A stretch of DNA of 64,000 nt from Mycobacterium sp. 3519A (GTDB lineage Bacteria; Actinomycetota; Actinomycetes; Mycobacteriales; Mycobacteriaceae), in assembly GCF_900240945.1 (NCBI RefSeq), contig NZ_OESG01000011.1:158778-222777 (forward strand). The letters are read 5' to 3'. The translations under genes were made by a program, and so were the position numbers. Each line of letters opens with the position of its first letter. The stretch's first letter is position 1. The notes under the pieces are model-generated. The model saw only the letters and a list, made by a program, of their open reading frames with translations. It did not search any database and was not told where the DNA came from. Shown here piece by piece: positions 33,088 to 62,627 of this stretch.

Positions 33088-33126
33088 ACGCAGGCCTCAG
33101 TTATCAAGAACCGTCCTTCCGATTAT

Positions 33127-33311: not shown

Positions 33312-33336
33312 ACTGCGAAGAACACTGAGGAGGATC

Positions 33337-34821: not shown

Positions 34822-34825
34822 TGTG

Positions 34826-34851
34826 GGGGCACCGCCCGCTTGCGGGGGACG
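34826..34851 (+). repeat. G/C-rich stem-loop in the operon spacer
   Basis: In the 55-bp gap between ALDH and CoA-transferase genes the sequence contains CCCGC-TT-GCGGG (34835-34846) inside a G-run context. It looks like a small dispersed intergenic repeat and might slightly reduce read-through, but a following GAGGAG ribosome site suggests the operon continues. Confidence 0.4.
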
Positions 34852-34876
34852 CTTGCGCGAAGAGGAGACAGCACTG

Positions 34877-36082: not shown

Positions 36083-36098
36083 GTTCGGAGAGATCTCA

Positions 36099-39242: not shown

Positions 39243-39252
39243 CGGGCTTCTG

Positions 39253-40110: not shown

Positions 40111-40120
40111 GGGAGCGAAG

Positions 40121-48796: not shown

Positions 48797-49177
48797 GTGC
48801 GGTCCGTCTTCGCAATACTCGGTGCCTTGATGGTCTCCGCGTTGGTCACCGCCGCGCCACCGGCGGCGGCGGATCCGACCGACTGCAACTACCCGTCGTG
48901 CACACCGGGTATCAGGCCGGCTGTGGTGCTGGGCTCCAACTGTGACAACACCACGTTCTACGTCTTCGGCGTGACCTCGTGGGGCCGCCTGGTGTTCTGC
49001 GGCTCACCGCGGCGGTACGAACCACGATGGTTCCGGTCACCCGAAATGCACGGCGTCAAGAACGAGGGCGACACGTGCCCCGCATTGGACGGCGAAGTCG
49101 CCCAAGCGCCCGACGGGTTGTTTCTCACCTGCGTGTTGAAAGACGGCAGCGCGCACTGGGCCCGCGGAGACACCTAG
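48797..49177 (+). CDS. Small Cys-containing secreted protein (paralogue 1)
   Basis: A 126-residue exported protein from a GTG start, with signal MRSVFAILGALMVSALVTAAPPAAA. The mature part has six Cys in the order DCNYPSC, NC, FC, TC, TC, and a Y-V-F-G..W-G-R-L-V-F-C core. It is homologous to the convergent gene at 49197-49583: both show C.x4.C.P..., a V..G..C turn, FxFG....G.L..C, CA/CP-x-L.G, and L.C near the end followed by W. The 77-bp upstream gap is shared with the divergent secreted protein gene. Function unknown. Confidence 0.83.
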   Translation: MRSVFAILGALMVSALVTAAPPAAADPTDCNYPSCTPGIRPAVVLGSNCDNTTFYVFGVTSWGRLVFCGSPRRYEPRWFRSPEMHGVKNEGDTCPALDGEVAQAPDGLFLTCVLKDGSAHWARGDT

Positions 49178-49196
49178 ACCTGACGGCGGCCACCGC

Positions 49197-49583
49197 TCAG
49201 AAATGCACCCACTGCAGTGCGCTGTTCACCTTTGCGCACCGCAGCGGCACCCCGAAGGTGCGGGGTTGTAAGTCGTTGCCTGCCACGGGTTCCTGCGCGG
49301 TGTCGCCCAGCCTGGCGCACGGTTGCGCCACCTGCTGCTCGCCGACCAGCGGTCCGACCCGCACCCACACACCCTGTGCGGAGCAGATCAAGGTGCCGAG
49401 GTTTGCATCCAAGCCGAAGACGAATGACGGCCCTGGTGCACACGGTGCGCCTTCGACGACGTTGCGCGCCACGTTCGGGACGCACAGCGCCGCGTCGCAG
49501 TCCGCCGATGACTGCGCCGCGAGAGAGACTGCGGCCGCGGTCAATCCAACAGTCAGAACCGGTATCGCGATGATCGTACGCAC
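49197..49583 (-). CDS. Small Cys-containing secreted protein (paralogue 2)
   Basis: A 128-residue exported protein starting at GTG 49583, behind GAGGGGA; a longer frame reaches 49646 but adds a charged segment before the signal. The signal peptide is about VRTIIAIPVLTVGLTAAAVSLAAQSSA. The mature part DCDAALCVPNVARNVVEGAPCAPGPSFVFG... has the same six-Cys layout as the neighbour at 48797-49177, ending in LRCAKVNSALQWVHF. The genes are tail to tail with 19 bp between stops, a duplication followed by inversion or an inverted duplication. Confidence 0.83.
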   Translation of the reverse strand: MRTIIAIPVLTVGLTAAAVSLAAQSSADCDAALCVPNVARNVVEGAPCAPGPSFVFGLDANLGTLICSAQGVWVRVGPLVGEQQVAQPCARLGDTAQEPVAGNDLQPRTFGVPLRCAKVNSALQWVHF

Positions 49584-49642
49584 GTGTGTCCCCTCGCCTG
49601 ATCGATCCAGCCTAGCGCGGCAGCGCGGCACCGACCGCAGTT

Positions 49643-50818
49643 TCACCAGCGCACCGGCAGTTCGGTGATTCCGCCCGCCAATGCGTCCCGCGGTAGCGTC
49701 AGTTCTGACACGTCGACCGCCAGTCGCAGCGTCGGGAACCGGGACACCAGTTGTGTGAACACGGTCTGGAGTTCGATGCGGGCCAGTGGCGCGCCGAGAC
49801 AGTACCTGGCGCCGTACCCCAAGGCGAGATGACCTGACGCGGAACGTGTTACATCCAGCCGGTCGGGATCCGGATAGGCGGCCGGGTCGAGGTTACCTGC
49901 GCCGAGATCGAGAAGGACGAGATCACCCGCCTTGACGGTGACGTCGTCGATGTCGAAGTCGCGGCGGGCATAGCGTGGCACCGGGAAGCCTCCGGTGCGG
50001 GCGGCCCGCAGGGTCTCCTCGATCGCGTTGGGGATCAGCGAGGGTTGATCGACGAGTGCCTGCCACTGCGCAGGGTTCGCCAGCAACAGCATTGCGGCAA
50101 GGCCGATTTGGATCACCGTCGTCTCGTGGCCTGCGAAGAGCAGAGCCATCGTCAAACCGGCCACCTCGAGGTCTTCGACACCCTCGGTTGCGCACAGCCG
50201 AGAGATGACGTCGTCACCCGGTTCCTGGCGTTTCGCCGCGACAAGCTGCAGGCCGTAACCGAACAACTGCATCATGCCCTGTTCCGAACGGGTTCGGTCG
50301 CGGGTGTCCGCGGCGTCGTCGGCCCAACTGCGGAACTGCTCACGATCCTGGTAGGGCACCCCGAGCAGTTCGCAGATGACCTGTATCGGCAAGGGAACGG
50401 CCAGCGCGGTGTGCAGATCTGCCTGCGGTCCCTGCTCGGCCATCTCGTCGAGCAGTTGCGCCGTCATCGCCTCGATCCGGGGCTGCATTGCGCGCATGTG
50501 CTTGGGCGCGAAGTGCGGTTGCAGGAGTTCGCGCATGCGTGCGGTGTCGGTGTCCTCGGTGTCGAAATTGCCTATCGGACCGCCGAACAACAACGATTCA
50601 CCCAGTCTTGCCGCGTTCTCCGGTTCGGGGTGGCCTCGACCAAGCCGGTCGTCGTCGAGCAGGCGTCGCACGTCAGCGTGCCGGGTGACGAGCCATCCCT
50701 CGTGGCCGACGCCGGTGCGCACCCGATGGATCGGCCCTGCGGCCTGAAGCTCGCGAAGTCGCGGTGCGACTTGCAGCGGATGTCCTTGCTCGAAAGGCAG
50801 TTGCGCCGCAACGGCCAT
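49643..50818 (-). CDS. Cytochrome P450
   Basis: A 391-residue P450 resembling the CYP105/CYP107-type enzymes of actinomycetes. The I-helix motif is LFAGHETTVIQ, ExxR is in IEETLRAARTGG, and haem ligand C340 lies in LGYGARYCLGAPLARIE. AAGGGGG precedes the ATG. It has no adjacent ferredoxin, unlike four other P450s of the window. It is monocistronic and divergent from the KshA-like operon, separated by 332 bp. Confidence 0.92.
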   Translation of the reverse strand: MAVAAQLPFEQGHPLQVAPRLRELQAAGPIHRVRTGVGHEGWLVTRHADVRRLLDDDRLGRGHPEPENAARLGESLLFGGPIGNFDTEDTDTARMRELLQPHFAPKHMRAMQPRIEAMTAQLLDEMAEQGPQADLHTALAVPLPIQVICELLGVPYQDREQFRSWADDAADTRDRTRSEQGMMQLFGYGLQLVAAKRQEPGDDVISRLCATEGVEDLEVAGLTMALLFAGHETTVIQIGLAAMLLLANPAQWQALVDQPSLIPNAIEETLRAARTGGFPVPRYARRDFDIDDVTVKAGDLVLLDLGAGNLDPAAYPDPDRLDVTRSASGHLALGYGARYCLGAPLARIELQTVFTQLVSRFPTLRLAVDVSELTLPRDALAGGITELPVRW

Positions 50819-51150
50819 GCCTGACCCCCTTACATTCCGGCACGAAGGTGTATCTAAGGATGCCCGCTACCGCACGACTTGTATAGCCGGTTTTCGATCC
50901 GTCATCGGCGGTGCGGTGCGTTTGCTGCGCGGTGACCGCCGGACATTGTATGCGGTGGATGCCGATGCCGGGCACAGCAATTCGATGAGTTGACCATCAG
51001 AGCCGAAGGCGCACATCAGATTTCATCGAACGCGTCAATATCCGTTCCTTGTGTTCATTGAACATGCATGCTTGACTTCGTAATATCAGCCGTTTGCCAG
51101 AAAGAGCGAAGCTGAGCGTTATTTGCACAAGGTGATTTCGGCGGTGGTGC
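50819..51150. promoter_or_regulatory. Intergenic region upstream of the KshA-like operon
   Basis: This 332-bp gap holds a dyad TGTTC-ATT-GAACA (51052-51064), a TTGACT hexamer at 51072 that could be a -35 box, and, at 51113-51159, the first copy of a ~47-bp element repeated in inverse orientation at 59471-59517. The element begins TGAGCGTTATTTGCACAA, ends at codon 3 of the oxygenase and thus includes its start. On the minus strand a TTAGAT at about 50855-50860 may belong to the P450 promoter. I saw nothing in 50890-51040. Confidence 0.55.
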
Positions 51151-52290
51151 ATGCAGCAGGTTCGTGAGATCGAGACGGGTTCGCTCCCGACGCGCTTCGC
51201 TCGGGGTTGGCATTGTCTGGGCCTGGCGCGGGACTTCCTCGACGGAAAGCCGCATGCCGTCGAGGCGTTCGGAACCAAATTGGTTGTCTTCCAAGACAGC
51301 CAGGGAGCACCGCGTGTCCTCGACGCGTATTGCAGGCACATGGGCGGTGACCTGAGCCGCGGTTCTGTCAAAGGTGATTCGATCGCGTGCCCGTTTCACG
51401 ATTGGCGCTGGGACGGCGACGGGCGGTGTGCACTGGTGCCGTATTCGAAACGGGTCCCCAAACTCGCGCGCACCCGTTCGTGGATCACGTGTCAACAGAA
51501 TCACCTGCTGTTCGTCTGGCATGACCCGGAAGGCAGTCCGCCGCCGGACGACGTCGCCATTCCGCGTATCGACGAAGTGTTCAGCGACCAGTGGACCGAC
51601 TGGACCGTGAAGCGCTGGCTCATCGAGAATTCACACAGCAGGGAAATCGTCGACAATGTGGCCGACACCGCTCACTTCTTCTATGTGCACGACGGCTTTC
51701 CGACCTACTTCAAAAACGTGTTCGAGGGCCATACTGCGACGCAGTATCTGACCAACCGCGGCAGGCCCGACACCGACCTGGGCCCGGCGTTCGCGAACTC
51801 GATCCTGAATTCCGAATCGTCGTATTACGGCCCGGCTTACGTGGTCACCTTCCTGCACAACAACTACAGCGGCTATCGCACCGAAGCGATCCTGATCGCC
51901 TTTCACTACCCGGTGACCCACGACTCGTTCATGCTTCACAACGCGGTGGCCGTGCAGAAGCCGCAGGGTCTGGATCCCGACACCACCGACAAGCTTGCGC
52001 GGATGGTCGCGGAAGGGGTGACGGCCGGCTTCGAACAGGATGTCGAGATCTTCAAGAGCAAGGCCAAGATCGACAACCCTCTGCTATGTGACGACGACGG
52101 CCCGATCTATCAACTGCGGCGTTGGTATGAGCAGTTCTACGTCGACGTCGCCGATGTCACACCGGAGATGACGGACCGGTTCGAGTGCGAGGTGGACACT
52201 TCCTATCCGACTCAGATCTGGACCCGAGAAGTGGAAGAGAACATGGCGCGGGAGTCCGCGAGTGCCACAGCACCGTCCACGGTGCGCTGA
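51151..52290 (+). CDS. kshA: Rieske oxygenase closely resembling 3-ketosteroid 9-alpha-hydroxylase KshA
   Basis: A 379-residue oxygenase component. Rieske ligands C61-x-H63 and C80-x2-H83 have the compact 16-residue loop. The catalytic site NVADTAHFFYVH gives D172, H175 and H180, and the next FPTYFKNVFEGH is a strong KshA match; length is that of KshA. KshA with reductase KshB hydroxylates C9 of androstenedione-like steroids and opens ring B. No kshB is in the window. The context (acyltransferase, Coq4-like protein, P450s, MmpL) differs from steroid catabolic loci, so it may act on another polycyclic substrate. The start codon lies within the 47-bp repeated element. Confidence 0.85.
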   Translation: MQQVREIETGSLPTRFARGWHCLGLARDFLDGKPHAVEAFGTKLVVFQDSQGAPRVLDAYCRHMGGDLSRGSVKGDSIACPFHDWRWDGDGRCALVPYSKRVPKLARTRSWITCQQNHLLFVWHDPEGSPPPDDVAIPRIDEVFSDQWTDWTVKRWLIENSHSREIVDNVADTAHFFYVHDGFPTYFKNVFEGHTATQYLTNRGRPDTDLGPAFANSILNSESSYYGPAYVVTFLHNNYSGYRTEAILIAFHYPVTHDSFMLHNAVAVQKPQGLDPDTTDKLARMVAEGVTAGFEQDVEIFKSKAKIDNPLLCDDDGPIYQLRRWYEQFYVDVADVTPEMTDRFECEVDTSYPTQIWTREVEENMARESASATAPSTVR

Positions 52291-52308
52291 GAAGGCCGGG
52301 GGAGCGCG

Positions 52309-53697
52309 GTGAAGGTGCACCGACTCGGTGGCTTCGATGCGACGCTGCTGCTGTTCGAGAGCCCATCGCAGCCGATGCACGCGTGCTCGCTGGCCGAACT
52401 GGACGTCTCGACCATGCCGGGCGGATACAGCTTCGAGGCCTTCCGGGAGATGCTCGCTGTGCGTACCCGCGCACTTCCGGAGTTCCGCGCGAAGGTGGTC
52501 GACAGCCGGCTCAACCTGGGCACCCCGGTGTGGGCGGAGGACCCGAATTTCGATATCGACAACCACGTGCATCGCCTCGACCTGCCCGCGCCGGGCGGTC
52601 AGCGCGAATTGTGCGATATCGCAGGGCGTCTGGCATCCGAACCGCTCGATCGCAGCCGACCCCTCTGGGACATGTGGGTGCTCGAGGGGGTTTCGGGTGT
52701 CGAGCCGAAGGTCAGCGGCCGCATCGCGGTGGTCATCAGGACACATCACGTTTTCGCCGACGGGCTGACCAGCGGTGACCTGTGGGCCAAGTTGTATGCC
52801 AGTGACACCGACGCTCCCGCGACGTCTCCTGTCGACGGTTTCGGCGATATCTCACCGCAACGCCTGGCGGTCGACGGACTGCTGCGCTTCGCGGCTCGAC
52901 CGTGGTTCCTACTGACCAGGCTCATCGTCCCTACCCTCGTGGCGCTGGCGCGGACGGTGGGGCGCGCCGTGCGCGGCCGAGCCATGTCGGCCCCGTTCCT
53001 CGCACCACGAATTCCGTTCAACGGCGACGTCAGCGAACGCCGCAACGTCGCCTACGCCAGGCTCGACCTGCGCGACGTCAAGACGGTCAAGAACACATTC
53101 GGGGTGAAGGTCAACGATGTGCTGCTGGCTGTGGTGTCGGGTGCGGTCAGGCAGTTCCTGGAATCGCGCGGCGCGCTGCCCGACAGGGCTTTGGTGGCGT
53201 TGATCCCGGTGGCGGTGCAGGACGGCAGGGAGGGACTTCGCAATCAGTTCGCGCCGATGTGGTCGAGTTTGCACACCGATCTGGAAGACCCGGTGGGACG
53301 GCTCAAAGCCATCGCCGAATCCAGTTCGGTTGCCAAAGAACACAGTTCGGCGATCGGCACCACGTTGCTCGCCGATTGGGCGCATTGCGCACCGTCGCTG
53401 CCGCCTGCCATCATGCGGCTGTACGCGTGGTCGGGGCTGAGCAAGCGCCTGCCCGTCTACAGCGTGTCGCTGTCGAATGTGCGGGGAGACCAACAGCAGA
53501 TCCTCGGCGCGCACGTCATCGCGAACTATCCATTCGGACCGGTGATGAACGGAGCCGGACTCAACATCACCGCGGCATCGCTCAACGGCAACATCGACTG
53601 CGGCCTGGTCTCCTGTCCGGAACTGCTGCCGGACCTGTGGGAGGTGGCAGACGCCATGCCCGTCGCGCTGAAGGAGTTGTTGAATGCAGCGCACTGA
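52309..53697 (+). CDS. WS/DGAT-family O-acyltransferase
   Basis: A 462-residue wax ester synthase/diacylglycerol acyltransferase. The catalytic motif HHxxxDG is intact as H146-H147-V-F-A-D151-G152, and the C-terminal region has the family segment LPVYSVSLSNVRGDQQQ with a PFGPVMNGAGLNITAASLNG end. GTG 52309 has GGGGGAG upstream. Such enzymes esterify an acyl-CoA onto an alcohol to give triacylglycerol, wax or steryl esters. Beside an oxygenase that creates a hydroxyl it would be suited to acylate the product. Confidence 0.9.
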   Translation: MKVHRLGGFDATLLLFESPSQPMHACSLAELDVSTMPGGYSFEAFREMLAVRTRALPEFRAKVVDSRLNLGTPVWAEDPNFDIDNHVHRLDLPAPGGQRELCDIAGRLASEPLDRSRPLWDMWVLEGVSGVEPKVSGRIAVVIRTHHVFADGLTSGDLWAKLYASDTDAPATSPVDGFGDISPQRLAVDGLLRFAARPWFLLTRLIVPTLVALARTVGRAVRGRAMSAPFLAPRIPFNGDVSERRNVAYARLDLRDVKTVKNTFGVKVNDVLLAVVSGAVRQFLESRGALPDRALVALIPVAVQDGREGLRNQFAPMWSSLHTDLEDPVGRLKAIAESSSVAKEHSSAIGTTLLADWAHCAPSLPPAIMRLYAWSGLSKRLPVYSVSLSNVRGDQQQILGAHVIANYPFGPVMNGAGLNITAASLNGNIDCGLVSCPELLPDLWEVADAMPVALKELLNAAH

Positions 53698-54505
53698 CCG
53701 CTCCGAATACCGCAATCCCGACGGCATCGTTCCCGACCGACGGTCATGGCGAACGATCATCGCAGGCTGGCGCGGCCTGACCGTCACCGGTAAACCCATG
53801 TACGAGTACTTCTATCTCGCTTCGCTGGAGATCTCGATACCGTCGATCCCACGCCAGTTCTATCAAGTGCGTGCTCACCCCCACGGCCGCAACATCATTC
53901 GCGACAAACCCGACCTGATGGCATTACTGCGCGATGAGGCGTATCTGGCGTCGCTGCCCGCAGGCACATTGGGGCACGCATACCGCTGCTTCCTCGCCCT
54001 CAACCGTCTCGATGCCGATGTGTTCGACGAGGCGAAGGTGGTTCGGCCACACGCCGAGGCGCGTAATTGGCACGAGGACTACTACTACTTCTTGATGCGG
54101 TGCAACGCGATGCACGATCTCTCCCACGTCGTCACCGGATACGGACCCGACCTGGCCGGCGAGATCACCGGAATCGGTTTCCAGTGTGGCCAAATGGAAC
54201 CCGCAGGGCCGTTGGAGAAGCTGGGGTATGCCGCGGCGGTGAGCCTGCCGGGTGGTTCGCTACGGCACAAGTTGCGCGTCTTCCGGCAGGCCGTCGAAAG
54301 AGGCAGGCGCGCGGACAAGCTCACAGCGGCGCCATGGGAACAGCTACTCGACAAACCGCTCGACGAAGTCAGGGCTCAACTGGGGGTGGCCCCGACACAC
54401 GAGGCACATCCCGACGGCCTCTGGTTCACCGCGTGGACGCCGCCCGGGATGCGGCCACCGACCCGGTGGGACTACGACGCGATCCTGGCCAAGGAACATG
54501 CCTGA
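53684..54505 (+). CDS. Coq4-like protein
   Basis: A 273-residue protein with the Coq4 zinc/metal motif HDxxH-x11-E complete: H144-D145-L-S-H148 and E160 in HDLSHVVTGYGPDLAGE. The preceding EDYYYFLMRCNAM and following IGFQCGQ also fit the family. Coq4 belongs to ubiquinone biosynthesis, where it takes part in C1 oxidative decarboxylation of the ring. Mycobacteria make menaquinone, so a different substrate is likely here. The gene overlaps the acyltransferase by 14 bp and the P450 by 8 bp, so it is a firm member of this operon and probably a tailoring enzyme. Confidence 0.85.
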   Translation: MQRTDRSEYRNPDGIVPDRRSWRTIIAGWRGLTVTGKPMYEYFYLASLEISIPSIPRQFYQVRAHPHGRNIIRDKPDLMALLRDEAYLASLPAGTLGHAYRCFLALNRLDADVFDEAKVVRPHAEARNWHEDYYYFLMRCNAMHDLSHVVTGYGPDLAGEITGIGFQCGQMEPAGPLEKLGYAAAVSLPGGSLRHKLRVFRQAVERGRRADKLTAAPWEQLLDKPLDEVRAQLGVAPTHEAHPDGLWFTAWTPPGMRPPTRWDYDAILAKEHA

Positions 54506-55847
54506 CGCGCGAGTCGGTCGACGTCCGCCCGGCCCCAACATCGTTGAGCTGGGCTGGCTGTCGCTACGGCACGCGGCCGACCCGTTCGCACTGCTGCCGC
54601 AGATCGCGAGTCGATACGGGGACGTGGTGGACCTCCCGGTGCCGATGCTGGGCTCGACGACCACGCTGCTCAGCCATCCCGATCACGTCGAGCACATCTT
54701 CGTCCGCGACCACAGCCGTTATCACCGGCATCATCTGACCAGTCAGTTGGTGCCGGGGGAGCCCGACGTGTTGCCGGTGCTCGAAGGCGAGGAATGGCGA
54801 CGCTGGCGCCGACCGCTGAACCCGCATTTCGGGGAGGAGGCGCTGGCGGCCAGAAGCCGCTCGATGGCCGCCGCGGTGTCGGCCGGGATGGACGCGTGGG
54901 CTCCATACACGACGTCCGGCCAGTGGATCGACCTCGAACACGAACTCGGCGCCGTGGTCATGGACGCGCTGCTGCGGTCGATGTTCAGCACTGTGCTTGA
55001 CCCAGAGACATTGGGCCGCTACGTCGATGCCGCGCGAGACCTTGGCAAGTACACCATCGGCAGGGCCTTGATGTCGGCCTTCCCGCGCTTCCTGCCCCGC
55101 CCCTTCCAGAGGCGCGGTGAGGCGGCGCAGCGGACGTTCCTCGGCGAGCTCGACAAACTGATCGTCCGGCGACAGGCCGAGGGCCCCCGCGACGTGCCCG
55201 ACATCCTGGACGCCCTGATGGGGATGACGTTCGACGGATGTCCTCAGATGGCCTACCGCAGGCTGCGCACAGAGCTTTCGTCGCTGGTCTTCGCCGGCTT
55301 CGAGACGACTGCGGAATCGGTGTCGTGGTGTTTGGCGTTGCTGCACGACAATACGTCTGCGCTTGCCAAGGCGTACGCGGAGGTGGATGCCCTGGCCGGC
55401 GCGCCGATCGAGTACGCCACCCTCGCTCAGCTGCCGTTCGTGCGCGCATGTTTCGATGAGGCCCTGCGAACCGAGGCTCCGCCCGGAATCCTGCGCACGG
55501 CCGCCGAGGACGACACCATCGACGGCTATCACATTCCGAAGGGCTCCCACGTCCTGGTCTCGCCGTTCGGTCTGCATCGTGACTCGCGATTCTGGAGTCG
55601 CCCAGAAGAATTCGAGCCAAGCCGGTTTCTGACCGGGAAGATCAACCGCAACGCCTACATTCCGTTCGGCATCGGCCCGCGCAAATGCCTGGGCTGGCGA
55701 CTGGCCTACATCGACGGCCTGATGACGTTGGCTGCGGTCCTGCAGCGCTACACCATCGAGATTCGACCCGGCTGGAAACCCAAACCGACGCTGCGGATAT
55801 CCACCGGACTGGTCGACGGGTTCCCCGTGTGTCTGACGACTCGCTGA
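54498..55847 (+). CDS. Cytochrome P450
   Basis: A 449-residue P450 of the longer, CYP135/137-like bacterial type. The N-terminal proline hinge (RRPPGPNIVELGW), I-helix FAGFETTAES, ExxR in FDEALRTEAPP, a WSRPEEFEPSRFL segment and haem ligand C397 in FGIGPRKCLGWRLA are present. ATG 54498 overlaps the Coq4-like gene. No ferredoxin follows. Its stop is 9 bp from the stop of another P450 on the minus strand. Probably hydroxylates or epoxidises the same lipid or polycyclic product as the other enzymes of the operon. Confidence 0.92.
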   Translation: MPDARVGRRPPGPNIVELGWLSLRHAADPFALLPQIASRYGDVVDLPVPMLGSTTTLLSHPDHVEHIFVRDHSRYHRHHLTSQLVPGEPDVLPVLEGEEWRRWRRPLNPHFGEEALAARSRSMAAAVSAGMDAWAPYTTSGQWIDLEHELGAVVMDALLRSMFSTVLDPETLGRYVDAARDLGKYTIGRALMSAFPRFLPRPFQRRGEAAQRTFLGELDKLIVRRQAEGPRDVPDILDALMGMTFDGCPQMAYRRLRTELSSLVFAGFETTAESVSWCLALLHDNTSALAKAYAEVDALAGAPIEYATLAQLPFVRACFDEALRTEAPPGILRTAAEDDTIDGYHIPKGSHVLVSPFGLHRDSRFWSRPEEFEPSRFLTGKINRNAYIPFGIGPRKCLGWRLAYIDGLMTLAAVLQRYTIEIRPGWKPKPTLRISTGLVDGFPVCLTTR

Positions 55848-55856
55848 GCGCTTACG

Positions 55857-57176
55857 CTAGTCCAGCACCACCGTGGCACCGCGGTCGGGCACGGGGCTGA
55901 TTCCGCCCCTGCGCACTCGCTCGGACCGGTCTGTGGTGGCCCGCACCGTGCAGTCGCCGAACAGGGCAGCCAGCACCACACGCATCTCGTTTTCGGCGAA
56001 TGCTTCACCGAGACAACGGCGGATGCCGCCACCGAACGGAATATACGTGTAGGTGCCGGTTCGCTTCCCGATGAAGCGCTCCGGGGAGAACCGCTCGGGT
56101 TCGGGATAGATCTCCGGCCGGCGGTGCATCAGATAGATGGACGGCACCACATCAACGCCTGCGGGCAATTGCACACCGTTGATGCGCATGGGCGCCTTGA
56201 GCCGCCGGGACACCAGCGAGATCACCGGCCGAAGACGCAAGGTCTCTTTGACTACCGCGGCCAGGAATTCTGTTTGTCCGCTTGCCAATTCGTCCTTTAG
56301 GCGGGCGTGATGGGCGGGGTGGCGCACCAATCGCTCGACCGCCCATGACAGCGCGGTCGCCGTGGTTTCGTGTCCCGCCAGCAGCAGGGTCATCAGCTCG
56401 TCGCGGATCTCGACGTCGCTCATCGGCATGCCGTCCTCGTGCCGGGCCGCCAACAGGGCTGACAGCACGTCGGCGCGCTCGCCGATGTGGCCTGCGCGTC
56501 GCCGCTCGGCGATCTCGGCGTAGAGCAGACGATCGACACCACGAAGCAACCTGCGGGTGAGTGTGGCCCTGATCCGCCGGGGTCCCAGCGCCACCAGGAA
56601 CAGCTGAGTCGCGACACCCGTTGTCCTGACGAAGATTCGTGTCATTGCCGCGCGCAGCGCATCCAGTCGCGTGCCCTCACTGAGCCCGAACACGGTGCGA
56701 AGGATGATCTCCAGCGTCAACGTCTGCATCAGCGGGTGCAGGCGCACCGGGGTCCGCCGCGGCCATCGAGCGATCTCGGCCTTGGTGACAGCGGTCATCG
56801 ACTCGGCGTAGGAGGTCAAGTGGTTGCCGCGGAAGGGCGGCATCAACAACCGGCGCTGTTGTCGGTGTGCCTCACCGTCGAGCAGCAACACCGAATTCGT
56901 GCCGAGTGCAGGCACCAGGATCTGCTTACCCTCGCCTGCGTGGAGCAGTTCGGGCGGACCCGTGAAGATCTCTTTGACCGCGTCCGGGTGCGAGACCATC
57001 ACCCAGGGCGGCTCACTGACGAGCCGCAGGGTGAACATGTCGCCATAACGGGCCGCCGACCTTGCCATGAATTCCCACGGCCTGGTGATGTACGCGGCGG
57101 TCTGAACAGCGACCGGTAGCCGGGGACCCGGCGGCAGTGAATCGGGCGTCACCACTTGGCTATCCACTGACAGCAC
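55857..57176 (-). CDS. Cytochrome P450
   Basis: A 439-residue P450 similar in design to CYP135/138-like proteins. N-terminal PPGPRLP hinge, GEAHRQQRRLLMPPF, I-helix LLAGHETTATA, ExxR in VKETLRLRPV, PERFSPERF and haem ligand C388 in FGGGIRRCLGEAFAENE are visible. GTG 57176 overlaps the end of the MmpL gene by 17 bp, so export and oxidation genes are co-translated. It belongs to the leftward operon that faces the KshA-like operon. Confidence 0.92.
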   Translation of the reverse strand: MLSVDSQVVTPDSLPPGPRLPVAVQTAAYITRPWEFMARSAARYGDMFTLRLVSEPPWVMVSHPDAVKEIFTGPPELLHAGEGKQILVPALGTNSVLLLDGEAHRQQRRLLMPPFRGNHLTSYAESMTAVTKAEIARWPRRTPVRLHPLMQTLTLEIILRTVFGLSEGTRLDALRAAMTRIFVRTTGVATQLFLVALGPRRIRATLTRRLLRGVDRLLYAEIAERRRAGHIGERADVLSALLAARHEDGMPMSDVEIRDELMTLLLAGHETTATALSWAVERLVRHPAHHARLKDELASGQTEFLAAVVKETLRLRPVISLVSRRLKAPMRINGVQLPAGVDVVPSIYLMHRRPEIYPEPERFSPERFIGKRTGTYTYIPFGGGIRRCLGEAFAENEMRVVLAALFGDCTVRATTDRSERVRRGGISPVPDRGATVVLD

Positions 57177-59412
57177 CTAACCGGTTTGGCGCATCGGTCG
57201 GGGACTGCTCCGGGTTCAAGCGCCTGTGCAGGCGTGCCAACGGCTTTGGTGCCCACCAGTTCCAGGGACCGAGCAGGTGCATGAACGCGGGCAGCAGCAC
57301 CATCCGGATCAACGTGGCGTCGACCAGAAGCGCAAGGGTGAGTCCCACACCGAACATCCGCATGATCGACACCTGCGCGCCGATCAAGGCGGCGAACGGA
57401 ATCGCCATCAACACGGCCGCCGCCGTGACGACCCGGCCAGCTTTCGCCAAGCCCAGCGCGACGCTCTCGTCGTTTTCGGCCTGTGTCCGGCCGGATTCCA
57501 GCCAGTGCTCCCGGATCCGGGCGACGAGGAACACTTCGTAATCCATCGAAAGCGCGAACGCGAAGAAAAACAGCGGTACCGGCACGATTGCAGCCAGTGT
57601 TCCGGTGGCGGTCGTACCAAAGGCGCCCAAGTGGCCGTCCTGGAAGAGCCACACCAACGCGCCGAACGTGACGGTCAATGACAGCACACTGAGAAGCAGT
57701 GCCTTGACCGGCACCACAACGCTTCCGGTGAGCAGGAACAGCAACACGAAAACGGTCGCTGCCATCACGGCGAGCACCCACGGCAGCGGTCGCGCGATCG
57801 CCTCGACGTTGTCCCGGTTGATCTGGGCCGCGCCGCTGATGAGCGTGGACCGCCCGGCCGGTCCCGCGACCTGGTGGAGACGATCCAGCTGCACATCAGA
57901 ACTCGTCGACAGCGAAGGCGCTGCGCTGTCGACGGTGAGGAATGCACTGCCTGCTGCGATTCCGGTGGCGGCGGACGGCGGCCCGACCCTGGCGCCGGAC
58001 ACATATGTGCCACCGGGGGAGGACACGCTGGAGACGTCGATGACACGGGACAACCGTTCGGCATACCGGTCCAGTTCGGCTGGCGCCAGGTTGTCGACGT
58101 CGGGAACGACGATCGTGATGGCGGCCGCCTCGTTGCGGGGGTAGTCGTCACGCAATTGGTCGCCCACCTGGCGTGCCTGCGTCGACGTCGGCAGCATCCG
58201 ATCGTCGGCCACACCCAACTGGACCCCGCCGAACGGCATCCCCAACAGCAGCAGCAGAACCACAACGCCGATGCCGACCGGAACCGCGTGCCGCATGACC
58301 TGTTTCGTTGTCCGGTACAAGAATTGCTGCTCGAGCGCGCGGTCGCCCGCAGGCCGCAACCGCAACGCTCGCCGCAGCGGCCGACGCACATCCAATGAGT
58401 TCAACCGATCCCCCAGCAGCACAATGGCCGCCGGTGCCACCAGCAGAGCGGAAGCCGCCGCGAAACCCACCGTCACGATGCCCGCATATGCGAGCGACCG
58501 CAATGCGCTCATCGGGAAGAGAATCATCGCGACCATCGACAGCGCGACGGTGACCGCGGAGAACGACACGGTCCGGCCTGCGGTCGACAGGGTGGTGAGA
58601 AGCGCCTCGTCACGGGTTGCGCCGTCGGCCAACTCGTCGCGATAGCGGTTGACCATGAGCAGCGTGTAGTCGACGGCCAGCGCGAAACCCAAGCCAACGC
58701 TGAGGTTCAACGCGAAGATCGAGACCTCGGTGGCCAACGACACCAACATCAACGCGGCCATGGATCCGACGATCGCGATCACGCCCACCGCGACGGGCAG
58801 TGCGGCGGCGATCAGACCACCGAACACCCACACCAGCACGAGGAAGCTGAGCGGGATCGCAATGGACTCCATCAGCACGAGATCGCTAGCCGCTTGCTGT
58901 TTCATCTGCGAGGCGAACATCGTTGGCCCGCCGACACGAACTGCTACCCCGTCGGTCCCCGCGGGCAGTTGCTTCGTCAGCGTCTCGGCCCGTACCGGTG
59001 CGGTGTTCTCGGTGCTTTGGATGTTCGCGACGATCAACCCGGAGGTGGCGTCCCTGCTGAGCAGTCGAGTCGACTCCTGCGGCGGCACCGTCCACGGCGA
59101 GATCACGCTGGCGACGTCTGGTGAATGAGAGAGGTGGTCGACAATCGTCATGCCCACATCGCGGGCCGGACCGTCGAGCGCACCTGAGCGATCGGTGACG
59201 GTGACCAACAACTGCCACCCGCTCTGGCCGAATTTCTCCGACATCACCGCCATCGCCCGCGACGATTCCGCGTTCGCATCGTATCCGCCACCGGCGCTTA
59301 AGTTTCCGGTCACCGAACATGCCAGCGCCCCGAAACCGATTGTCAGCAACGCTGCGACGACGAGGATGCGTCGCGGCGCGGTAATGGCCAGCAGCGCCAG
59401 GCGTCGCAACAC
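57160..59412 (-). CDS. mmpL: MmpL-family RND lipid transporter
   Basis: A protein of about 750 residues with the MmpL/RND layout: a first membrane helix (ILVVAALLTIGFGALAC), a large extracytoplasmic domain, a block of helices containing GFALAVDYTLLMVNRYRDE, a second domain, and a second helix block with ALSMDYEVFLVARIREHWLE. The two D-Y motifs are the proton-relay sites. It is shorter than the 900-1000-residue glycolipid exporters and lacks an adjacent mmpS. GTG 59412 gives the usual LRRLALLA start; TTG 59433 is possible. It probably exports, or flips, the lipid built by this cluster. The second 47-bp element copy lies 59 bp upstream. Confidence 0.9.
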   Translation of the reverse strand: MLRRLALLAITAPRRILVVAALLTIGFGALACSVTGNLSAGGGYDANAESSRAMAVMSEKFGQSGWQLLVTVTDRSGALDGPARDVGMTIVDHLSHSPDVASVISPWTVPPQESTRLLSRDATSGLIVANIQSTENTAPVRAETLTKQLPAGTDGVAVRVGGPTMFASQMKQQAASDLVLMESIAIPLSFLVLVWVFGGLIAAALPVAVGVIAIVGSMAALMLVSLATEVSIFALNLSVGLGFALAVDYTLLMVNRYRDELADGATRDEALLTTLSTAGRTVSFSAVTVALSMVAMILFPMSALRSLAYAGIVTVGFAAASALLVAPAAIVLLGDRLNSLDVRRPLRRALRLRPAGDRALEQQFLYRTTKQVMRHAVPVGIGVVVLLLLLGMPFGGVQLGVADDRMLPTSTQARQVGDQLRDDYPRNEAAAITIVVPDVDNLAPAELDRYAERLSRVIDVSSVSSPGGTYVSGARVGPPSAATGIAAGSAFLTVDSAAPSLSTSSDVQLDRLHQVAGPAGRSTLISGAAQINRDNVEAIARPLPWVLAVMAATVFVLLFLLTGSVVVPVKALLLSVLSLTVTFGALVWLFQDGHLGAFGTTATGTLAAIVPVPLFFFAFALSMDYEVFLVARIREHWLESGRTQAENDESVALGLAKAGRVVTAAAVLMAIPFAALIGAQVSIMRMFGVGLTLALLVDATLIRMVLLPAFMHLLGPWNWWAPKPLARLHRRLNPEQSPTDAPNRLGAVSG

Positions 59413-59470
59413 GTCACACCGTCCGGTGAGCAAAGCGCTTAGGAATCACGCCGTTCGTGACCTCACATGG

Positions 59471-59517
59471 CTGCTGCTTTGCACCACCGTCAAATTCGGT
59501 TGTGCAAATAACGCTCA
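59471..59517 (-). repeat. Second copy of the ~47-bp promoter-proximal element
   Basis: On the minus strand this reads TGAGCGTTATTTGCACAA, identical over 18 bases with 51113-51130, then after about 9 divergent bases CGGTGGTGCA and GCAGCAG, as in 51141-51159. Copy 1 faces the KshA-like gene and copy 2 faces the MmpL gene, so the two copies bracket the convergent operons. It may be a common control site or the remnant of a duplicated gene start (the Met-Gln-Gln of the oxygenase falls within it). Confidence 0.7.
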
Positions 59518-59646
59518 AGGGTGCCGCGTGCCATGCTGGGCAAACACGCGCTGTGGGCATCAGTGAATCATGCTGGGTGTTCGGGGCGCAAGGGTCGCAG
59601 GGGTGGGGCCTCCAGCCGCGGCGTCAAGACCCATGCGCCTCAACCA

Positions 59647-59676
59647 TTGTCGCCGCCGGTTCGACCGGCTTACGAT
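59647..59676 (+). promoter_or_regulatory. Promoter of the methyltransferase pair
   Basis: TTGTCG (59647-59652), an 18-bp spacer and TACGAT (59671-59676) make a good mycobacterial sigma-A promoter. The transcript would start at about 59682-59685, where a GTG and an ATG stand, so the message is probably leaderless. Confidence 0.6.
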
Positions 59677-59684
59677 CTGCGGTG

Positions 59685-60512
59685 ATGACGAGGATGACCA
59701 GCCTTAAGCCGCGGGACCTGTTCTTCCGCGTGGCTTACCACCCGTTCGTGTTGAAACACTCACCGAAGTACCACTATCCATGGCTGACCGGTCAGGTCGA
59801 AGGCGAGAACGTGGTGTTCCTCAACGCCGGTTACGAAGAGGACCCGCCGCTGAACCTGCCGTTGGAGCCGGCCGACGAACCGAACAGGGCGTGCATTCAG
59901 CAGTATCACCTCACCGCCACCCAGGCGGGCATCAGCGGCAAACGCGTGCTCGAGGTGGGCTGCGGCCACGGTGGCGGCGCTTCCTACCTGACCCGCTATC
60001 TGCACCCGGCTTCTTATGTCGGAATGGATCTGAACGCCAAGGGCATAGCGTTCTGTCAGCGCACTCACGACGTGCCGGGGTTGACGTTCGTCCACGGCGA
60101 TGCCCAGTCGTTGCCGTTTCCTGACGAGTCGTTCGACGTGGTGATCAATGTCGAGTCGTCGCACAGCTATCCCGATTTCCCAGGGTTCCTGCGCGAGGTC
60201 GCCCGCGTGCTCACCACGGGCGGACATTTCCTCTACACCGATCTGCGCATCCGCAACCGGGTCGCCGAATGGGAGATGCAGCTGGCCCAGGCGCCATTGA
60301 CGATGCTGTCGAGCCGAGACATCAACGCCGGAGTCGTCAGAGGTTTCGACCAGTGGTGGGTATCCCCGCAGACCCGCGAGACGTTCGAGCGTGTGGTGCC
60401 ACCGATGCTGCGCGGCGTCGTCAAAGGTGCGATGGGCGCACCGGGTGCCGGGCTGTACCGCGCCATGCAGGACGGGACCATGGTGTACCGGATGTACAGC
60501 TTCGTGAAGTGA
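59685..60512 (+). CDS. SAM-dependent methyltransferase (copy 1)
   Basis: A 275-residue class I methyltransferase. The SAM motif is VLEVGCGHGGGASYL, followed by GMDLNAKGIAFC, the GDAQSLPFPDESFDVV motif and ARVLTTGGHFLYTDLR. Overall it resembles mycobacterial lipid O-methyltransferases such as the phthiotriol/phenolphthiotriol enzyme. ATG 59685 fits the leaderless promoter just upstream; a longer frame to 59457 runs through that promoter. A paralogue follows 6 bp later. The probable role is O-methylation of a hydroxyl on a cell-envelope lipid. Confidence 0.9.
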   Translation: MTRMTSLKPRDLFFRVAYHPFVLKHSPKYHYPWLTGQVEGENVVFLNAGYEEDPPLNLPLEPADEPNRACIQQYHLTATQAGISGKRVLEVGCGHGGGASYLTRYLHPASYVGMDLNAKGIAFCQRTHDVPGLTFVHGDAQSLPFPDESFDVVINVESSHSYPDFPGFLREVARVLTTGGHFLYTDLRIRNRVAEWEMQLAQAPLTMLSSRDINAGVVRGFDQWWVSPQTRETFERVVPPMLRGVVKGAMGAPGAGLYRAMQDGTMVYRMYSFVK

Positions 60513-60518
60513 CGACGC

Positions 60519-61313
60519 ATGGGAATTCTGTTCCGCGTGGCATTCAACCCGCTGGCGTTCAGGCTTTCGGCGAAGTACATCTATCCGCTTGCCACCCGTC
60601 GGATGGAAGCCGACGACGTCGTCTTCTTCAACTTCGGCTACGAACAGGATCCGCCGCTGGGTCTGCCGTTGGAGGCGGTCGACGAACCGAATCGGATGTG
60701 TATCCAGCTGTATCACCGCACGGCTACGCAGGCGGATATCGGCGGTAAGCGTGTGTTGGAAGTGGGGTGCGGGCACGGTGGCGGCGCTTCTTACCTCACC
60801 CGTTATCTCGGTCCGGCGTCCTACACCGGAATGGACCTGAATCCCAGAGGAATTGAGTACTGCCGACGGGTGCACGCGGTGCCAGGACTGGACTTCGTCC
60901 AAGGCGACGCCCAAGCGCTGCCCTTCCCCGACGAGTCGTTCGACGCCGTGCTGAACATCGAATCGTCGCACTGCTACCCGGATTTCCCCGGGTTTCTGCG
61001 CGAGGTCGCCCGCGTGCTCGCGCCGGGCGGACGATTCCTCTACGCCGATCTGCGCAACCGCAACAAGGTGGCGGAATGGGAGGCGCAACTGGCCGCCGCC
61101 CCGCTGACCATGCTCGACGAACGCGACATCAGCACCGAAGTCGAACGCGGACTTGAGAAGTCACGAAGCTCACCGGAACTGAACGAATTGGTCACGCGCC
61201 GGACCCCGACATTGCTGCGCGGCGTGGCCGAGCATGGGGCACGCAGGCTCAACCGCGCGCTGCAGACCCGGGAGATCTGTTACCGGATGTACGACTTCGT
61301 CAAGCCGGCGTGA
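60519..61313 (+). CDS. SAM-dependent methyltransferase (copy 2)
   Basis: A 264-residue paralogue of the preceding enzyme with the same motifs: VLEVGCGHGGGASYL, GMDLNPRGIEYC, GDAQALPFPDESFDAV and ARVLAPGGRFLYADLR, and a matching start (GILFRVAFNPLAFRLSAKYIYPL). The two are tandem duplicates that have diverged mainly in the region after residue 190, which probably contacts the acceptor. They could methylate two positions of one lipid. Its end overlaps the convergent P450 gene by 14 bp. Confidence 0.9.
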   Translation: MGILFRVAFNPLAFRLSAKYIYPLATRRMEADDVVFFNFGYEQDPPLGLPLEAVDEPNRMCIQLYHRTATQADIGGKRVLEVGCGHGGGASYLTRYLGPASYTGMDLNPRGIEYCRRVHAVPGLDFVQGDAQALPFPDESFDAVLNIESSHCYPDFPGFLREVARVLAPGGRFLYADLRNRNKVAEWEAQLAAAPLTMLDERDISTEVERGLEKSRSSPELNELVTRRTPTLLRGVAEHGARRLNRALQTREICYRMYDFVKPA

Positions 61314-62577
61314 ACTCGATGTTGAGTTCGGTGAGCCCGCGCAAAATGAACGTCGGCTCGTAGGTGTAGTTGCGCGCGTCGATCGGGCCGTGCTTCTCCT
61401 CGCTGATCCTGATGTCGGCCAGGCGGTCGAGCAGCCGCTCGATCGAGACCCGCCCTTCGACACGAGCCAGCGGGGCGCCTGGGCAGGAGTGGATGCCGCG
61501 GCTGAACGCGATGTGCTCGCGGACGTTCTTGCGGTCGAGTTGGAACTCGTGCGGATTGTCGAACCGCCGGGGATCGCGGTTGGCCGCCCCGGGGCTGACC
61601 ATCACCGTGGTGCCCGCAGGCACCGGCGTCTCGCCGAGAGTCGTTGTCTTGCGGGCCATCCGGAACACACTCTTGACCGGGCTGTCCATCCGCAGGCATT
61701 CCTCGATGAAGACCGGAATCAGGCTGCGGTCCTCACGAAGGCGTTGCTGGATGTCGGGCCGGTCGCCGAGCACGCGCAGCGCCGCGCCCAACAGCTTCGC
61801 AGTGGTCTCCTGGCCGGCGGCGAACAAGAACGTAGCGGTGCGTACGACGTCGACCACCTCGGGTGTGGAGCCGTCCGGATATTTGGCGGTCGCGATCGAC
61901 GTCAGCACGTCGTCGCGGGGAGTCTCGCGGCGATCTTCGATGTACTGCGAGAACTTGTCGTCCGCCCACGCCAGCGGATTGGTGGCGATCACCTCGTGGT
62001 CGAGGGCGCCGATGTTGGTTCCCGGCTGTCCCGCGCCGAACGACTGCCGGAACTCCTCGTGGTCCGACTCGGGAACCCCCAGCAGATCGGCCACCACCAA
62101 GAGCGAGAAGGGTTTCGCGTATGCGGCGAGGAATTCGCAGCGACCGTCGGCGATGAACTCGTCGATGTGGCGATCGGCCAACCGCCACATGAAGTCCTCG
62201 TTCTCCTTCAGCCGCTTGGGCGTCAGCAGCCGGGACAGGATCGAGCGCGCGTCCGTGTGCTGCGGCGGATCCATCGTCACCATGTGCTCGAACATCGGGA
62301 TCTCGGTGCGGTGCTGCTCGAGCAGTGCGGTGATGTCGTCGCCCTCGGGGGTGAACGGGATCGGCGTGAACGGACCCATGACCGCGACGCAGGACGAGTA
62401 GTTCTCGGCGTCCTTGTAGACGTTGTTGGCCGACTCCCAACCTGTCACCGCGAGCACCCCGTTGTTGATCGGACAGCACACCGCATTCTTCTGCCGGATG
62501 TGGTCGTAGTAGGGGTGCGGGTCTGGCACCAGCGACGGATCCGTGAAGTAGTCGACAGCGTCGTAATCGGTGGTCAT
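61300..62577 (-). CDS. Cytochrome P450
   Basis: A 425-residue P450, clear paralogue of the one at 9575-10849: both share RLLTPKRLKENED-like and GRGIHSCPGAPLAR-like segments and end in LRGLTEL. I-helix AAGQETTAKLL, ExxR in EECLRMDSP, haem ligand C365 in FSRGIHSCPGAPLAR. ATG 62577 (MTTDYDAVDYFTD) is preferred over 62616, because the longer form would run through the palindrome at 62606-62627. No ferredoxin follows. The divergent TetR regulator probably controls it. Confidence 0.92.
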   Translation of the reverse strand: MTTDYDAVDYFTDPSLVPDPHPYYDHIRQKNAVCCPINNGVLAVTGWESANNVYKDAENYSSCVAVMGPFTPIPFTPEGDDITALLEQHRTEIPMFEHMVTMDPPQHTDARSILSRLLTPKRLKENEDFMWRLADRHIDEFIADGRCEFLAAYAKPFSLLVVADLLGVPESDHEEFRQSFGAGQPGTNIGALDHEVIATNPLAWADDKFSQYIEDRRETPRDDVLTSIATAKYPDGSTPEVVDVVRTATFLFAAGQETTAKLLGAALRVLGDRPDIQQRLREDRSLIPVFIEECLRMDSPVKSVFRMARKTTTLGETPVPAGTTVMVSPGAANRDPRRFDNPHEFQLDRKNVREHIAFSRGIHSCPGAPLARVEGRVSIERLLDRLADIRISEEKHGPIDARNYTYEPTFILRGLTELNIEFTPA

Positions 62578-62605
62578 CTGATGCGTTCCCTTCCGAATCC
62601 CGAAT

Positions 62606-62627
62606 GTGCTGAGCACCTGCTTAGCAC
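62606..62627. promoter_or_regulatory. Palindromic operator between P450 and TetR genes
   Basis: A 22-bp dyad: GTGCTGAGCA (62606-62615), CC, TGCTTAGCAC (62618-62627); the arms are inverted repeats with one mismatched pair. It lies 29 bp before the P450 start and about 100 bp before the TetR start. The position is typical of a TetR regulator that controls the divergent gene and itself. Confidence 0.7.

What the first reader, a model, noticed from the sequence alone, without database searches (positions are those of the whole stretch)
51151..61313. Possible undescribed lipid- or polycycle-tailoring and export cluster
KshA-like Rieske oxygenase, WS/DGAT acyltransferase, Coq4-like protein, P450, P450, MmpL exporter and two lipid-type O-methyltransferases stand together with overlapping genes. 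Families alone suggest hydroxylate, oxidise, acylate or methylate, and export. I know no named pathway with this set, and there is no polyketide synthase in the window, so the scaffold must come from elsewhere.
Basis: partly seen in the sequence, partly recalled or inferred. Interest (0 to 1): 0.75.

Follow-up and report, generated by a model that had tools for sequence, protein, structure and literature searches.

The report
Mobile mycobacterial lipid-tailoring and export cluster
A 12-kb block of oxidising, methylating, acylating and exporting genes has been inserted between two ordinary genes of this mycobacterium, and shuffled versions of the same block turn up at other places in a few other species, so it very probably makes and exports a lipid that nobody has identified.

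Summary
The genes are there and form a real unit, larger than reported. In all nine relatives examined, the left-flank gene (48797-49177) and the right-flank P450 (61300-62616) lie next to each other or with one small gene between, and no cluster gene. One Mycobacterium carries all nine enzyme/transport genes in another order elsewhere; three more genomes carry a six-gene core (KshA-like, WS/DGAT, Coq4, P450, MmpL, methyltransferase). Of 396 same-genus genomes, 4 (own included) hold this KshA type at 75% identity or more. GC3 is below the flanks in 4 of 4 genomes tested; dN/dS is low. The two main operons share an 18-bp upstream element; a 17-bp search found no other exact copy in 7.3 Mb. The KshA-like protein keeps all iron ligands, but 4 of 8 published putative ring contacts differ: probably an active oxygenase with a changed substrate. 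Best reading: a horizontally acquired cassette that oxidises, methylates, acylates and exports a small lipophilic, perhaps steroid- or terpenoid-like, molecule. Substrate, product and reaction order are inferred; the cassette has no scaffold enzyme.

The parts
49178..61300 (.). Inserted segment (island) between two genes that are neighbours in relatives
   Evidence: 0 of 9 relatives examined (8 chosen for an 80-90% P450d, plus G128) have a cluster gene between the 48797-type gene and the 61300-type P450; in 5 of 9 only 17-132 bp lie between the matched parts, in 4 of 9 one small gene
49197..49646 (-). Small ORF of 149 aa with an apparent signal sequence; 26-39% identical over 59-148 residues to relatives of the 48797-49177 gene; overlaps the P450 by 4 nt; accessory
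   Evidence: no Pfam or NCBIfam match
49643..50818 (-). Cytochrome P450 'a' (nearest solved structures PimD, pentalenolactone synthase, NysL); 81% identical copy in the G198 cluster
51113..51130 (+). 18-bp element TGAGCGTTATTTGCACAA, 20 nt before the KshA-like start
51151..52290 (+). KshA-like Rieske oxygenase with a changed substrate pocket
52309..53697 (+). WS/DGAT-type O-acyltransferase, HHVFADG motif intact
53684..54505 (+). Coq4-like protein, HDxxHx11E motif intact (motif recalled)
54498..55847 (+). Cytochrome P450 'b' (part of the six-gene core); start inferred, the longest ORF begins at 54252
55857..57176 (-). Cytochrome P450 'c' (80% identical copy in G198)
57160..59412 (-). MmpL (RND) transporter, short form, with the two Asp-Tyr pairs expected from MmpL3 (recalled); the longest ORF begins at 59433
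59500..59517 (-). Second copy of the 18-bp element, upstream of mmpL in the same orientation to transcription
59685..60512 (+). SAM methyltransferase 1 (Rv2952/Mtf2-like); start inferred from the domain
60519..61313 (+). SAM methyltransferase 2, paralogue of 1
48797..49177 (+). Left flank, not part of the island: small ORF with apparent signal sequence, next to an Mce operon
61300..62616 (-). Right flank, not part of the island: cytochrome P450 'd'

Best explanation
This is a horizontally acquired, self-contained tailoring-and-export cassette. A KshA-derived Rieske oxygenase and P450s oxidise a small lipophilic, probably polycyclic or terpenoid-like, molecule. The Coq4-like protein acts on the oxidised intermediate, perhaps as an oxidative decarboxylase. 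One or two SAM enzymes O-methylate it and the WS/DGAT enzyme acylates it. The MmpL transporter moves the product across the inner membrane. Shown by computation: the insertion, the conserved gene content, the shuffled order, the different composition, purifying selection, intact catalytic motifs and the altered KshA pocket. Inferred: horizontal transfer as the cause, the reaction order, the substrate class, export of the product, and co-regulation through the 18-bp element. The KshA-like enzyme would need a reductase such as KshB from elsewhere in the genome (inferred).
For: Empty site: 0 of 9 relatives examined have cluster genes between the two flank genes. All nine enzyme/transport genes lie in L003 (Mycobacterium sp. 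1081908.1) in another order at 65-83% protein identity. The six-gene core is in L084, L030 and L136. Lower GC3 than flanks in 4 of 4 genomes tested, p 0.001 to 3e-6. dN/dS 0.10-0.26 in 15 of 15 gene comparisons. Identical 18-bp element upstream of the kshA-like gene and mmpL; a 17-bp search of the 7.3-Mb genome found 2 exact matches, both here, 1 more place at 2 mismatches, and 1 place at up to 2 mismatches for the reversed control. KshA type at 75% identity or more in 4 of 396 same-genus genomes (own included), while 370 of 396 have some match at E<=1e-150. Pocket changes M238V, N240T, N257A, W308F with iron ligands kept. Of the three closest own-genome MmpL paralogues (56-61%), one lies beside a type III PKS and an ICMT methyltransferase and one near an NRPS, which fits export of small specialised lipids.
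Against: No enzyme in the cassette makes a scaffold. No product is known. The 18-bp element is not conserved: no exact match in the other genomes searched, G198, G255, G128 and G028 (G948 was not searched for it). P450a, P450c and the second methyltransferase were found in only 2 of 5 genomes, in the stretches fetched. No pathway regulator was recognised in the window's cassette. The MmpL role rests on family alone, and the closest paralogue (61%, L042) had no PKS or NRPS in the two neighbours scanned. The lower GC3 in the window is modest (0.79 against 0.84).
Confidence: 0.6

Rival explanations
1. Accessory steroid or lipid catabolism: the KshA-like enzyme and P450s widen the range of sterols that can be degraded, next to an Mce uptake operon with thiolase/DUF35-type genes, and the MmpL removes toxic intermediates.
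For: The true KshA family is catabolic. The window's left flank holds an Mce operon with aldehyde dehydrogenase, CoA-transferase, a ChsH2-like OB-fold protein and a thiolase, and the G128 cluster lies about 16 kb beyond an orthologous Mce operon.
Against: No CoA ligase, acyl-CoA dehydrogenase or ring-cleavage family in the cassette. Methyltransferases and WS/DGAT are not degradative. The Mce neighbourhood also exists without the cassette in the 8 other relatives. Four ring-contact residues are changed.
Confidence: 0.2
2. Tailoring of a long-chain polyketide or fatty-acyl product: the substrate comes from a large synthase such as the modular PKS (Pks12-like by recall) beside which the cassette sits in Mycobacterium sp. 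1081908.1, or from fatty acid synthase.
For: In G198 a modular type I PKS and an epimerase/PEP-utiliser protein stand directly beside mmpL. In G128 a type I fatty acid synthase begins 3.7 kb beyond WS/DGAT (L030 19329 to L087 8701, with ACPS after it).
Against: No such synthase was recognised around the G255 cassette (not every ORF was scanned) or among the window ORFs scanned in 29909-63752. The G948 stretch fetched is too short to tell. Fatty acid synthase I is a housekeeping gene of mycobacteria (recalled), so its nearness may mean nothing.
Confidence: 0.12
3. Sterol C-4 demethylation-like chemistry (as SdmA/SdmB): the Rieske enzyme oxidises a ring methyl group and Coq4 or the SDR of relatives removes it as CO2.
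For: A Rieske oxygenase plus SDR-type reductase pair does this in sterol-making bacteria (PMC10202945, passages). An epimerase-type SDR is present in the G198 and G255 clusters.
Against: SdmA model score 52 against a cut-off of 600. No match to PF13243, the squalene-hopene cyclase C-terminal family, in 4 of 4 cluster genomes. The SDR of G198 has no relative in the window (best E 0.3) and none at E<=1e-3 in L030, L136 or L031.
Confidence: 0.05

Closest known systems
KshA, oxygenase of 3-ketosteroid 9alpha-hydroxylase (PDB 2zyl, 4qck, 4qdc)
   Same: Whole-length homology (E 3e-170), Rieske motif, two His and one Asp iron ligands, bridging Asp, Gln204, Tyr232, Phe301 and, in the window copy, Val176
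   Different: Met238, Asn240, Asn257 and Trp308 are replaced by Val, Thr, Ala and Phe; falls in a separate 21-row clade; sits in a tailoring/export cassette
MmpL-linked mycobacterial lipid clusters (phthiocerol dimycocerosate, glycopeptidolipid, acyltrehalose; recalled)
   Same: MmpL exporter, acyltransferase and Rv2952/Mtf2-type O-methyltransferases together
   Different: No PKS or NRPS of its own; contains a Rieske oxygenase, a Coq4 and several P450s; WS/DGAT in place of a Pap-type acyltransferase
Variant cluster in G028 (L031: SDR, P450, MmpL, WS/DGAT, Coq4, P450)
   Same: Coq4 (63%), MmpL (50%) and WS/DGAT (50%) together with P450s
   Different: P450s only about 30% identical to those of the window; no KshA-like gene or methyltransferase match in the 20 kb examined
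MmGI-1 lipid-metabolism island of M. massiliense (PMC4263727, passages)
   Same: Genomic island of a mycobacterium with lipid genes, thought to be horizontally acquired
   Different: Far larger (105 of its ORFs have relatives in Actinomycetales), with beta-oxidation genes and an mce operon; in the main text Rieske 0 and Coq 0 occurrences, MmpL 1, P450 2
Bacterial sterol C-4 demethylation, SdmA/SdmB (PMC10202945, passages)
   Same: Rieske oxygenase, with an SDR in some of the clusters
   Different: Far below the SdmA model cut-off; no PF13243 cyclase in the 4 genomes searched

Membership tests
KshA (3-ketosteroid 9alpha-hydroxylase) | Rieske plus KshA_C domains over cut-off | tested here: met
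   KshA_C 266 bits (cut-off 23.3), Rieske 76 bits (cut-off 20.3)
KshA (3-ketosteroid 9alpha-hydroxylase) | Iron ligands His181, His186, Asp304 and bridging Asp178 | tested here: met
   Present in the window copy and in 149 of 149 aligned rows
KshA (3-ketosteroid 9alpha-hydroxylase) | The eight putative ring-contacting residues, conserved among known KshAs (PMC4064121 passages) | tested here: not met
   4 of 8 differ in the window copy (M238V, N240T, N257A, W308F); Asn257 is kept in 126 and Trp308 in 127 of the 128 rows outside the clade
KshA (3-ketosteroid 9alpha-hydroxylase) | 9alpha-hydroxylation of a 3-ketosteroid | not testable with these tools
   Needs an enzyme assay
Coq4 | Coq4 Pfam domain and HDxxHx(about 11)E motif (motif recalled) | tested here: met
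   69 bits, cut-off 22.9; HDLSHVVTGYGPDLAGE
Coq4 | Oxidative decarboxylase activity, reported for human COQ4 (PMC11495197 passages) | not testable with these tools
   Function may differ; mycobacteria use menaquinone (recalled)
MmpL3, trehalose monomycolate exporter | NCBIfam equivalog NF052608 over cut-off | tested here: not met
   331 bits against 1400; nearest solved structure is MmpL3, E 3e-84
MmpL (RND) transporter | MMPL domain and Asp-Tyr pairs in two membrane segments (recalled) | tested here: met
   224 bits, cut-off 20.5; Asp-Tyr near residues 255 and 631, and a third near 430; membrane segments were not predicted
Phthiotriol/phenolphthiotriol dimycocerosate methyltransferase | NF045823 over cut-off | tested here: met
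   369 and 384 bits, cut-off 300
Phthiotriol/phenolphthiotriol dimycocerosate methyltransferase | Location in a phthiocerol (pps/mas) locus | tested here: not met
   No PKS among the ORFs scanned with Pfam in 29909-63752; the rest of the genome was not checked for such a locus
Fatty-acid O-methyltransferase Mtf2 | NF045825 over cut-off | tested here: not met
   350 and 378 bits, cut-off 400
WS/DGAT acyltransferase | TIGR02946 over cut-off and HHxxxDG | tested here: met
   416.7 bits, cut-off 309.95; HHVFADG
SdmA sterol C-4 methyl oxidase | NF052579 over cut-off | tested here: not met
   52.4 bits against 600
Self-contained biosynthetic gene cluster | A scaffold-forming enzyme (PKS, NRPS, terpene cyclase) | tested here: not met
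   None among the cassette genes

The most novel reading that the evidence does not exclude
A catabolic steroid hydroxylase (KshA) has been recruited into biosynthesis on a mobile cassette. Some mycobacteria take a steroid- or terpenoid-like polycycle from host, environment or central metabolism, oxidise it, O-methylate and acylate it, and export it through a dedicated MmpL. That would be a class of mycobacterial envelope lipid or secreted signal not yet described.
Probability: 0.22. Interest if true: 0.85.

Novelty: new variant of a known kind. Interest (0 to 1): 0.55.

Why it matters
Mycobacterial envelope lipids shape permeability, drug tolerance and interaction with hosts, and most known ones come from PKS-linked MmpL clusters (recalled). 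A tailoring and export cassette without its own scaffold enzyme could be missed by searches that require a core enzyme (inference; no such search was run). Its KshA-like clade has a pocket signature, testable at the bench, that separates it from other KshA-type proteins. This matters for annotation: 3,890 proteins match the window copy at E<=1e-100, and among the 120 listed many are named 3-ketosteroid 9alpha-hydroxylase or monooxygenase, including clade members such as P0085 and P0086, which may be misnamed.

Tried and rejected
Other Coq4 homologues as cluster markers: of 23 matching genomes among 198, the wider context of 12 (own plus 11) was examined. In 9 of 12 Coq4 stood without the other cluster genes (one has a P450 27% identical to P450c about 4 kb away), and in 6 of these it lies next to one related family of ORFs that look TetR-like by eye. 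The other 11 of 23 were seen only as loci of about 2.6-3.8 kb, with no other cluster gene found. Wider searches with Coq4: 6 of 301 genomes at family level (E<=1e-60; 5 in the genus, own included, 1 in another genus, G415, whose contig ends soon after and shows no other cluster gene) and 7 of 397 at order level (E<=1e-40; all in the genus).

Steroid or hopanoid origin by cyclase: PF13243 absent in 4 of 4 cluster genomes; the control rang in 2 of 14 genomes. Other terpene cyclases were not searched.

Conservation of the 18-bp element: not found in the fetched cluster loci at up to 4 mismatches (L084 and L136 were fetched later and not in that scan) nor exactly in G198, G255, G128 or G028; the 6 hits at 2 mismatches lie on contigs other than the cluster contig, and the reversed control gave as many or more hits in 3 of the 4 genomes and none in the fourth. 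It therefore supports co-regulation only in the window's genome, or a recent duplication of a promoter region.

P450d (61300-62616) as a member: rejected, because its 80-90% relatives sit in the same place without the cassette.

Mobile-element ends: the repeat search shows no long direct repeat at the borders; no tRNA in the window and no integrase or transposase family among the cassette and nearby ORFs scanned. The transfer mechanism is unknown.

Literature: searches listed 15 of 40, 8 of 21, 0, 1 of 1 and 7 of 7 papers. Judged by titles and abstract starts, none of those listed describes this gene set. The library holds open-licence papers only, so this is weak evidence of absence. One search led to the KshA review, search 59 to the COQ4 review and search 86 to the SdmA paper. 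Seen as passages only: PMC4064121, PMC11495197, PMC4263727, PMC10202945, PMC6429209.

Structure prediction and fold searches were not used: the key protein is homologous over its whole length to solved KshA structures.

G128 has a type I fatty acid synthase 3.7 kb away, and the rival built on it was raised from 0.10 to 0.12.
Full report
What was checked. The listed genes are all in the window. They form four transcription-like units: 49643-50818 plus 49197-49646 on the minus strand; KshA-like, WS/DGAT, Coq4 and P450b on the plus strand with an 18-nt gap and then overlaps of 14 and 8 nt; MmpL and P450c on the minus strand with a 17-nt overlap; and two methyltransferases on the plus strand. The long start at 59457 for the first methyltransferase is probably wrong: the family match starts near residue 99, and an ATG at 59685 fits. 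MmpL probably starts at GTG 59412, where its relative in L003 starts.

The edges. Eight relatives carrying an 80-90% version of P450d were fetched. In all eight, and in G128, the Mce operon and the small gene 48797-49177 are followed by P450d with no cluster gene between. In 5 of these 9 the gap between the matched parts is 17-132 bp; in the other 4 there is one small extra gene and up to about 0.7 kb of further sequence. The window holds about 12.1 kb there. So the cassette runs from about 49178 to 61300.

Conservation. Mycobacterium sp. 1081908.1 (L003; the same place as G198 and G286 C155) holds all nine enzyme/transport genes within 12.5 kb at 65-83% protein identity, in the order MmpL-, P450a-, Coq4+, P450b+, P450c-, SDR-, MT1+, MT2+, WS/DGAT-, KshA-. 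G128 and G948 hold MT, MmpL, KshA, Coq4, P450b, a further P450 (broken in G128) and WS/DGAT; the ORF beside WS/DGAT in G128 is an SDR of another type. Core in 5 of 5: KshA-like, WS/DGAT, Coq4, P450b, MmpL, one methyltransferase. G128 and G948 share a site, so there are four different sites in five genomes. The rpoB region is 87-90% identical in DNA among G000, G198, G255 and G128, so these are separate species (inference). G948 was not among the 396; it came. A looser relative, G028 (L031), has SDR, two P450s, MmpL, WS/DGAT and Coq4, without KshA or methyltransferase in the stretch fetched.

Neighbours that make chains. In G198 the cassette abuts a modular type I PKS (two KS, two AT, DH, ER, KR and ACP matches in the part scanned, plus the end in L003). 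In G128 a type I fatty acid synthase begins 3.7 kb beyond WS/DGAT. No such synthase was recognised near the G255 or window copies, where not every flanking ORF was scanned. So the scaffold source is open.

Foreign make-up and function kept. GC3 of cluster genes against surrounding predicted ORFs: window 0.79 against 0.84 (10 genes against 41 ORFs, p 0.001), G255 0.78 against 0.91, G198 0.79 against 0.87, G128 0.77 against 0.84 (p 4e-5 or less). The flank ORFs come from a simple caller and may include false ones. dN/dS lies at 0.10-0.26 in 9 of 9 comparisons of window and G198 and 6 of 6 of G128 and G948, by a simple count method with near-saturated dS in the first pair. Catalytic motifs are present in the enzymes (motifs recalled); P450a has Leu in place of the usual Phe at the start of the haem loop, and so does its G198 copy.

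Shared upstream element. TGAGCGTTATTTGCACAA stands 20 nt before the KshA-like start and 87 nt before the probable MmpL start, in the same orientation to transcription. A search with 17 of these bases finds exactly two exact copies in the 7.3-Mb genome, both here, and one other place at 2 mismatches; the reversed control found one place at up to 2 mismatches. It was not found in the cluster loci scanned or exactly in four other cluster or variant genomes, so it is evidence for co-regulation in this genome only.

The oxygenase. The KshA-like protein aligns over its whole length with M. tuberculosis KshA (2zyl, E 3e-170). A review lists Val176, Gln204, Tyr232, Met238, Asn240, Asn257, Phe301 and Trp308 as putative substrate contacts and says that residues predicted to touch the ring system are conserved among known KshAs (PMC4064121, passages). 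In the window copy the iron ligands and Asp178, Val176, Gln204, Tyr232 and Phe301 are kept, while Met238, Asn240, Asn257 and Trp308 are Val, Thr, Ala and Phe. In a 149-row alignment (4 cluster genes, 119 database hits, 26 genome loci), the 21 rows of this clade have Thr240 21 of 21, Phe308 21 of 21, Ala257 19 of 21 and Val238 18 of 21. The other 128 rows have Asn240 116, Trp308 127, Asn257 126 and Met238 126. The one outside row with Phe308 (P0168) also has Thr240 and Ala257 and was not in the tree. Some rows are duplicates (P0086 is the G255 protein), and the database rows are the best 119 of 3,890. The clade is set apart with SH-aLRT 100 in a 66-row tree, in which the four cluster genes are mixed with 17 database rows of unknown context. 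The G948 copy, examined later, has the same four residues. This supports an active oxygenase with a changed substrate; what substrate is not known. Losing two Asn and gaining smaller or apolar residues may mean that the 3-keto end is not read in the same way (inference).

The other parts. The nearest solved relative of the MmpL is MmpL3, but it fails the MmpL3 equivalog cut-off. Of its three closest paralogues in the same genome (56-61%), one lies next to a type III PKS and an ICMT-type methyltransferase and one near an NRPS with an ABC transporter between; the closest, L042, had a methyltransferase and a CoA-transferase among the two neighbours scanned. Small specialised lipids are therefore plausible cargo. 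Both methyltransferases pass the NCBIfam cut-off for the phthiotriol type and miss that for Mtf2; with no phthiocerol locus beside them the substrate should differ. Human COQ4 is reported to replace a ring carboxyl by hydroxyl in one step (PMC11495197, passages); the same chemistry here is a guess.

Reading. A mobile tailoring and export cassette is the best-supported account (0.6). A polycyclic substrate is plausible from KshA ancestry, the P450s and the WS/DGAT, but unproven. The strongest points against certainty are the missing scaffold enzyme, the variable accessory genes, and the absence of any expression or product data.

Noticed in passing
window 29909-48173: Block of P450, two SDRs, aldehyde dehydrogenase, CoA-transferase, ChsH2-like OB-fold protein, thiolase and an Mce operon, largely kept in order in G128 and in the 8 relatives fetched (one contig starts inside the Mce operon); looks like a lipid or steroid uptake and use locus.
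   Followed up: partly
window 48797-49177 and 49197-49646: Two related small Cys-containing ORFs with apparent signal sequences, no known family, one on each side of the island's left edge.
   Followed up: partly
L043 (G000 C13:158500-178400): Own-genome paralogous MmpL next to a type III PKS and an ICMT-type methyltransferase, with a P450 46% identical to P450c nearby: a probable polyketide-lipid export locus.
   Followed up: partly
L044 (G000 C12:827500-847400): Another MmpL paralogue, with a TAG stop inside its frame, near a large NRPS with a terminal reductase-type domain and an ABC transporter.
   Followed up: no
L030 3204-4588: The second P450 of the G128 cluster is split between two frames, while the G948 copy (L136) is intact; a pseudogene or an assembly error.
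   Followed up: no
L003 1-6405 and L049: The cassette of Mycobacterium sp. 1081908.1 sits beside a large modular PKS (Pks12-like by recall) and an epimerase/PEP-utiliser fusion protein.
   Followed up: partly
L030 19329 to L087 9129 (G128): A type I fatty acid synthase and an ACPS gene begin 3.7 kb beyond the G128 cassette.
   Followed up: partly
window 51113-51150 and about 59480-59517: Similarity of the two upstream regions seems to extend past the 18-bp element (a shared CGGTGGTGCA further on), which suggests a duplicated promoter region.
   Followed up: no
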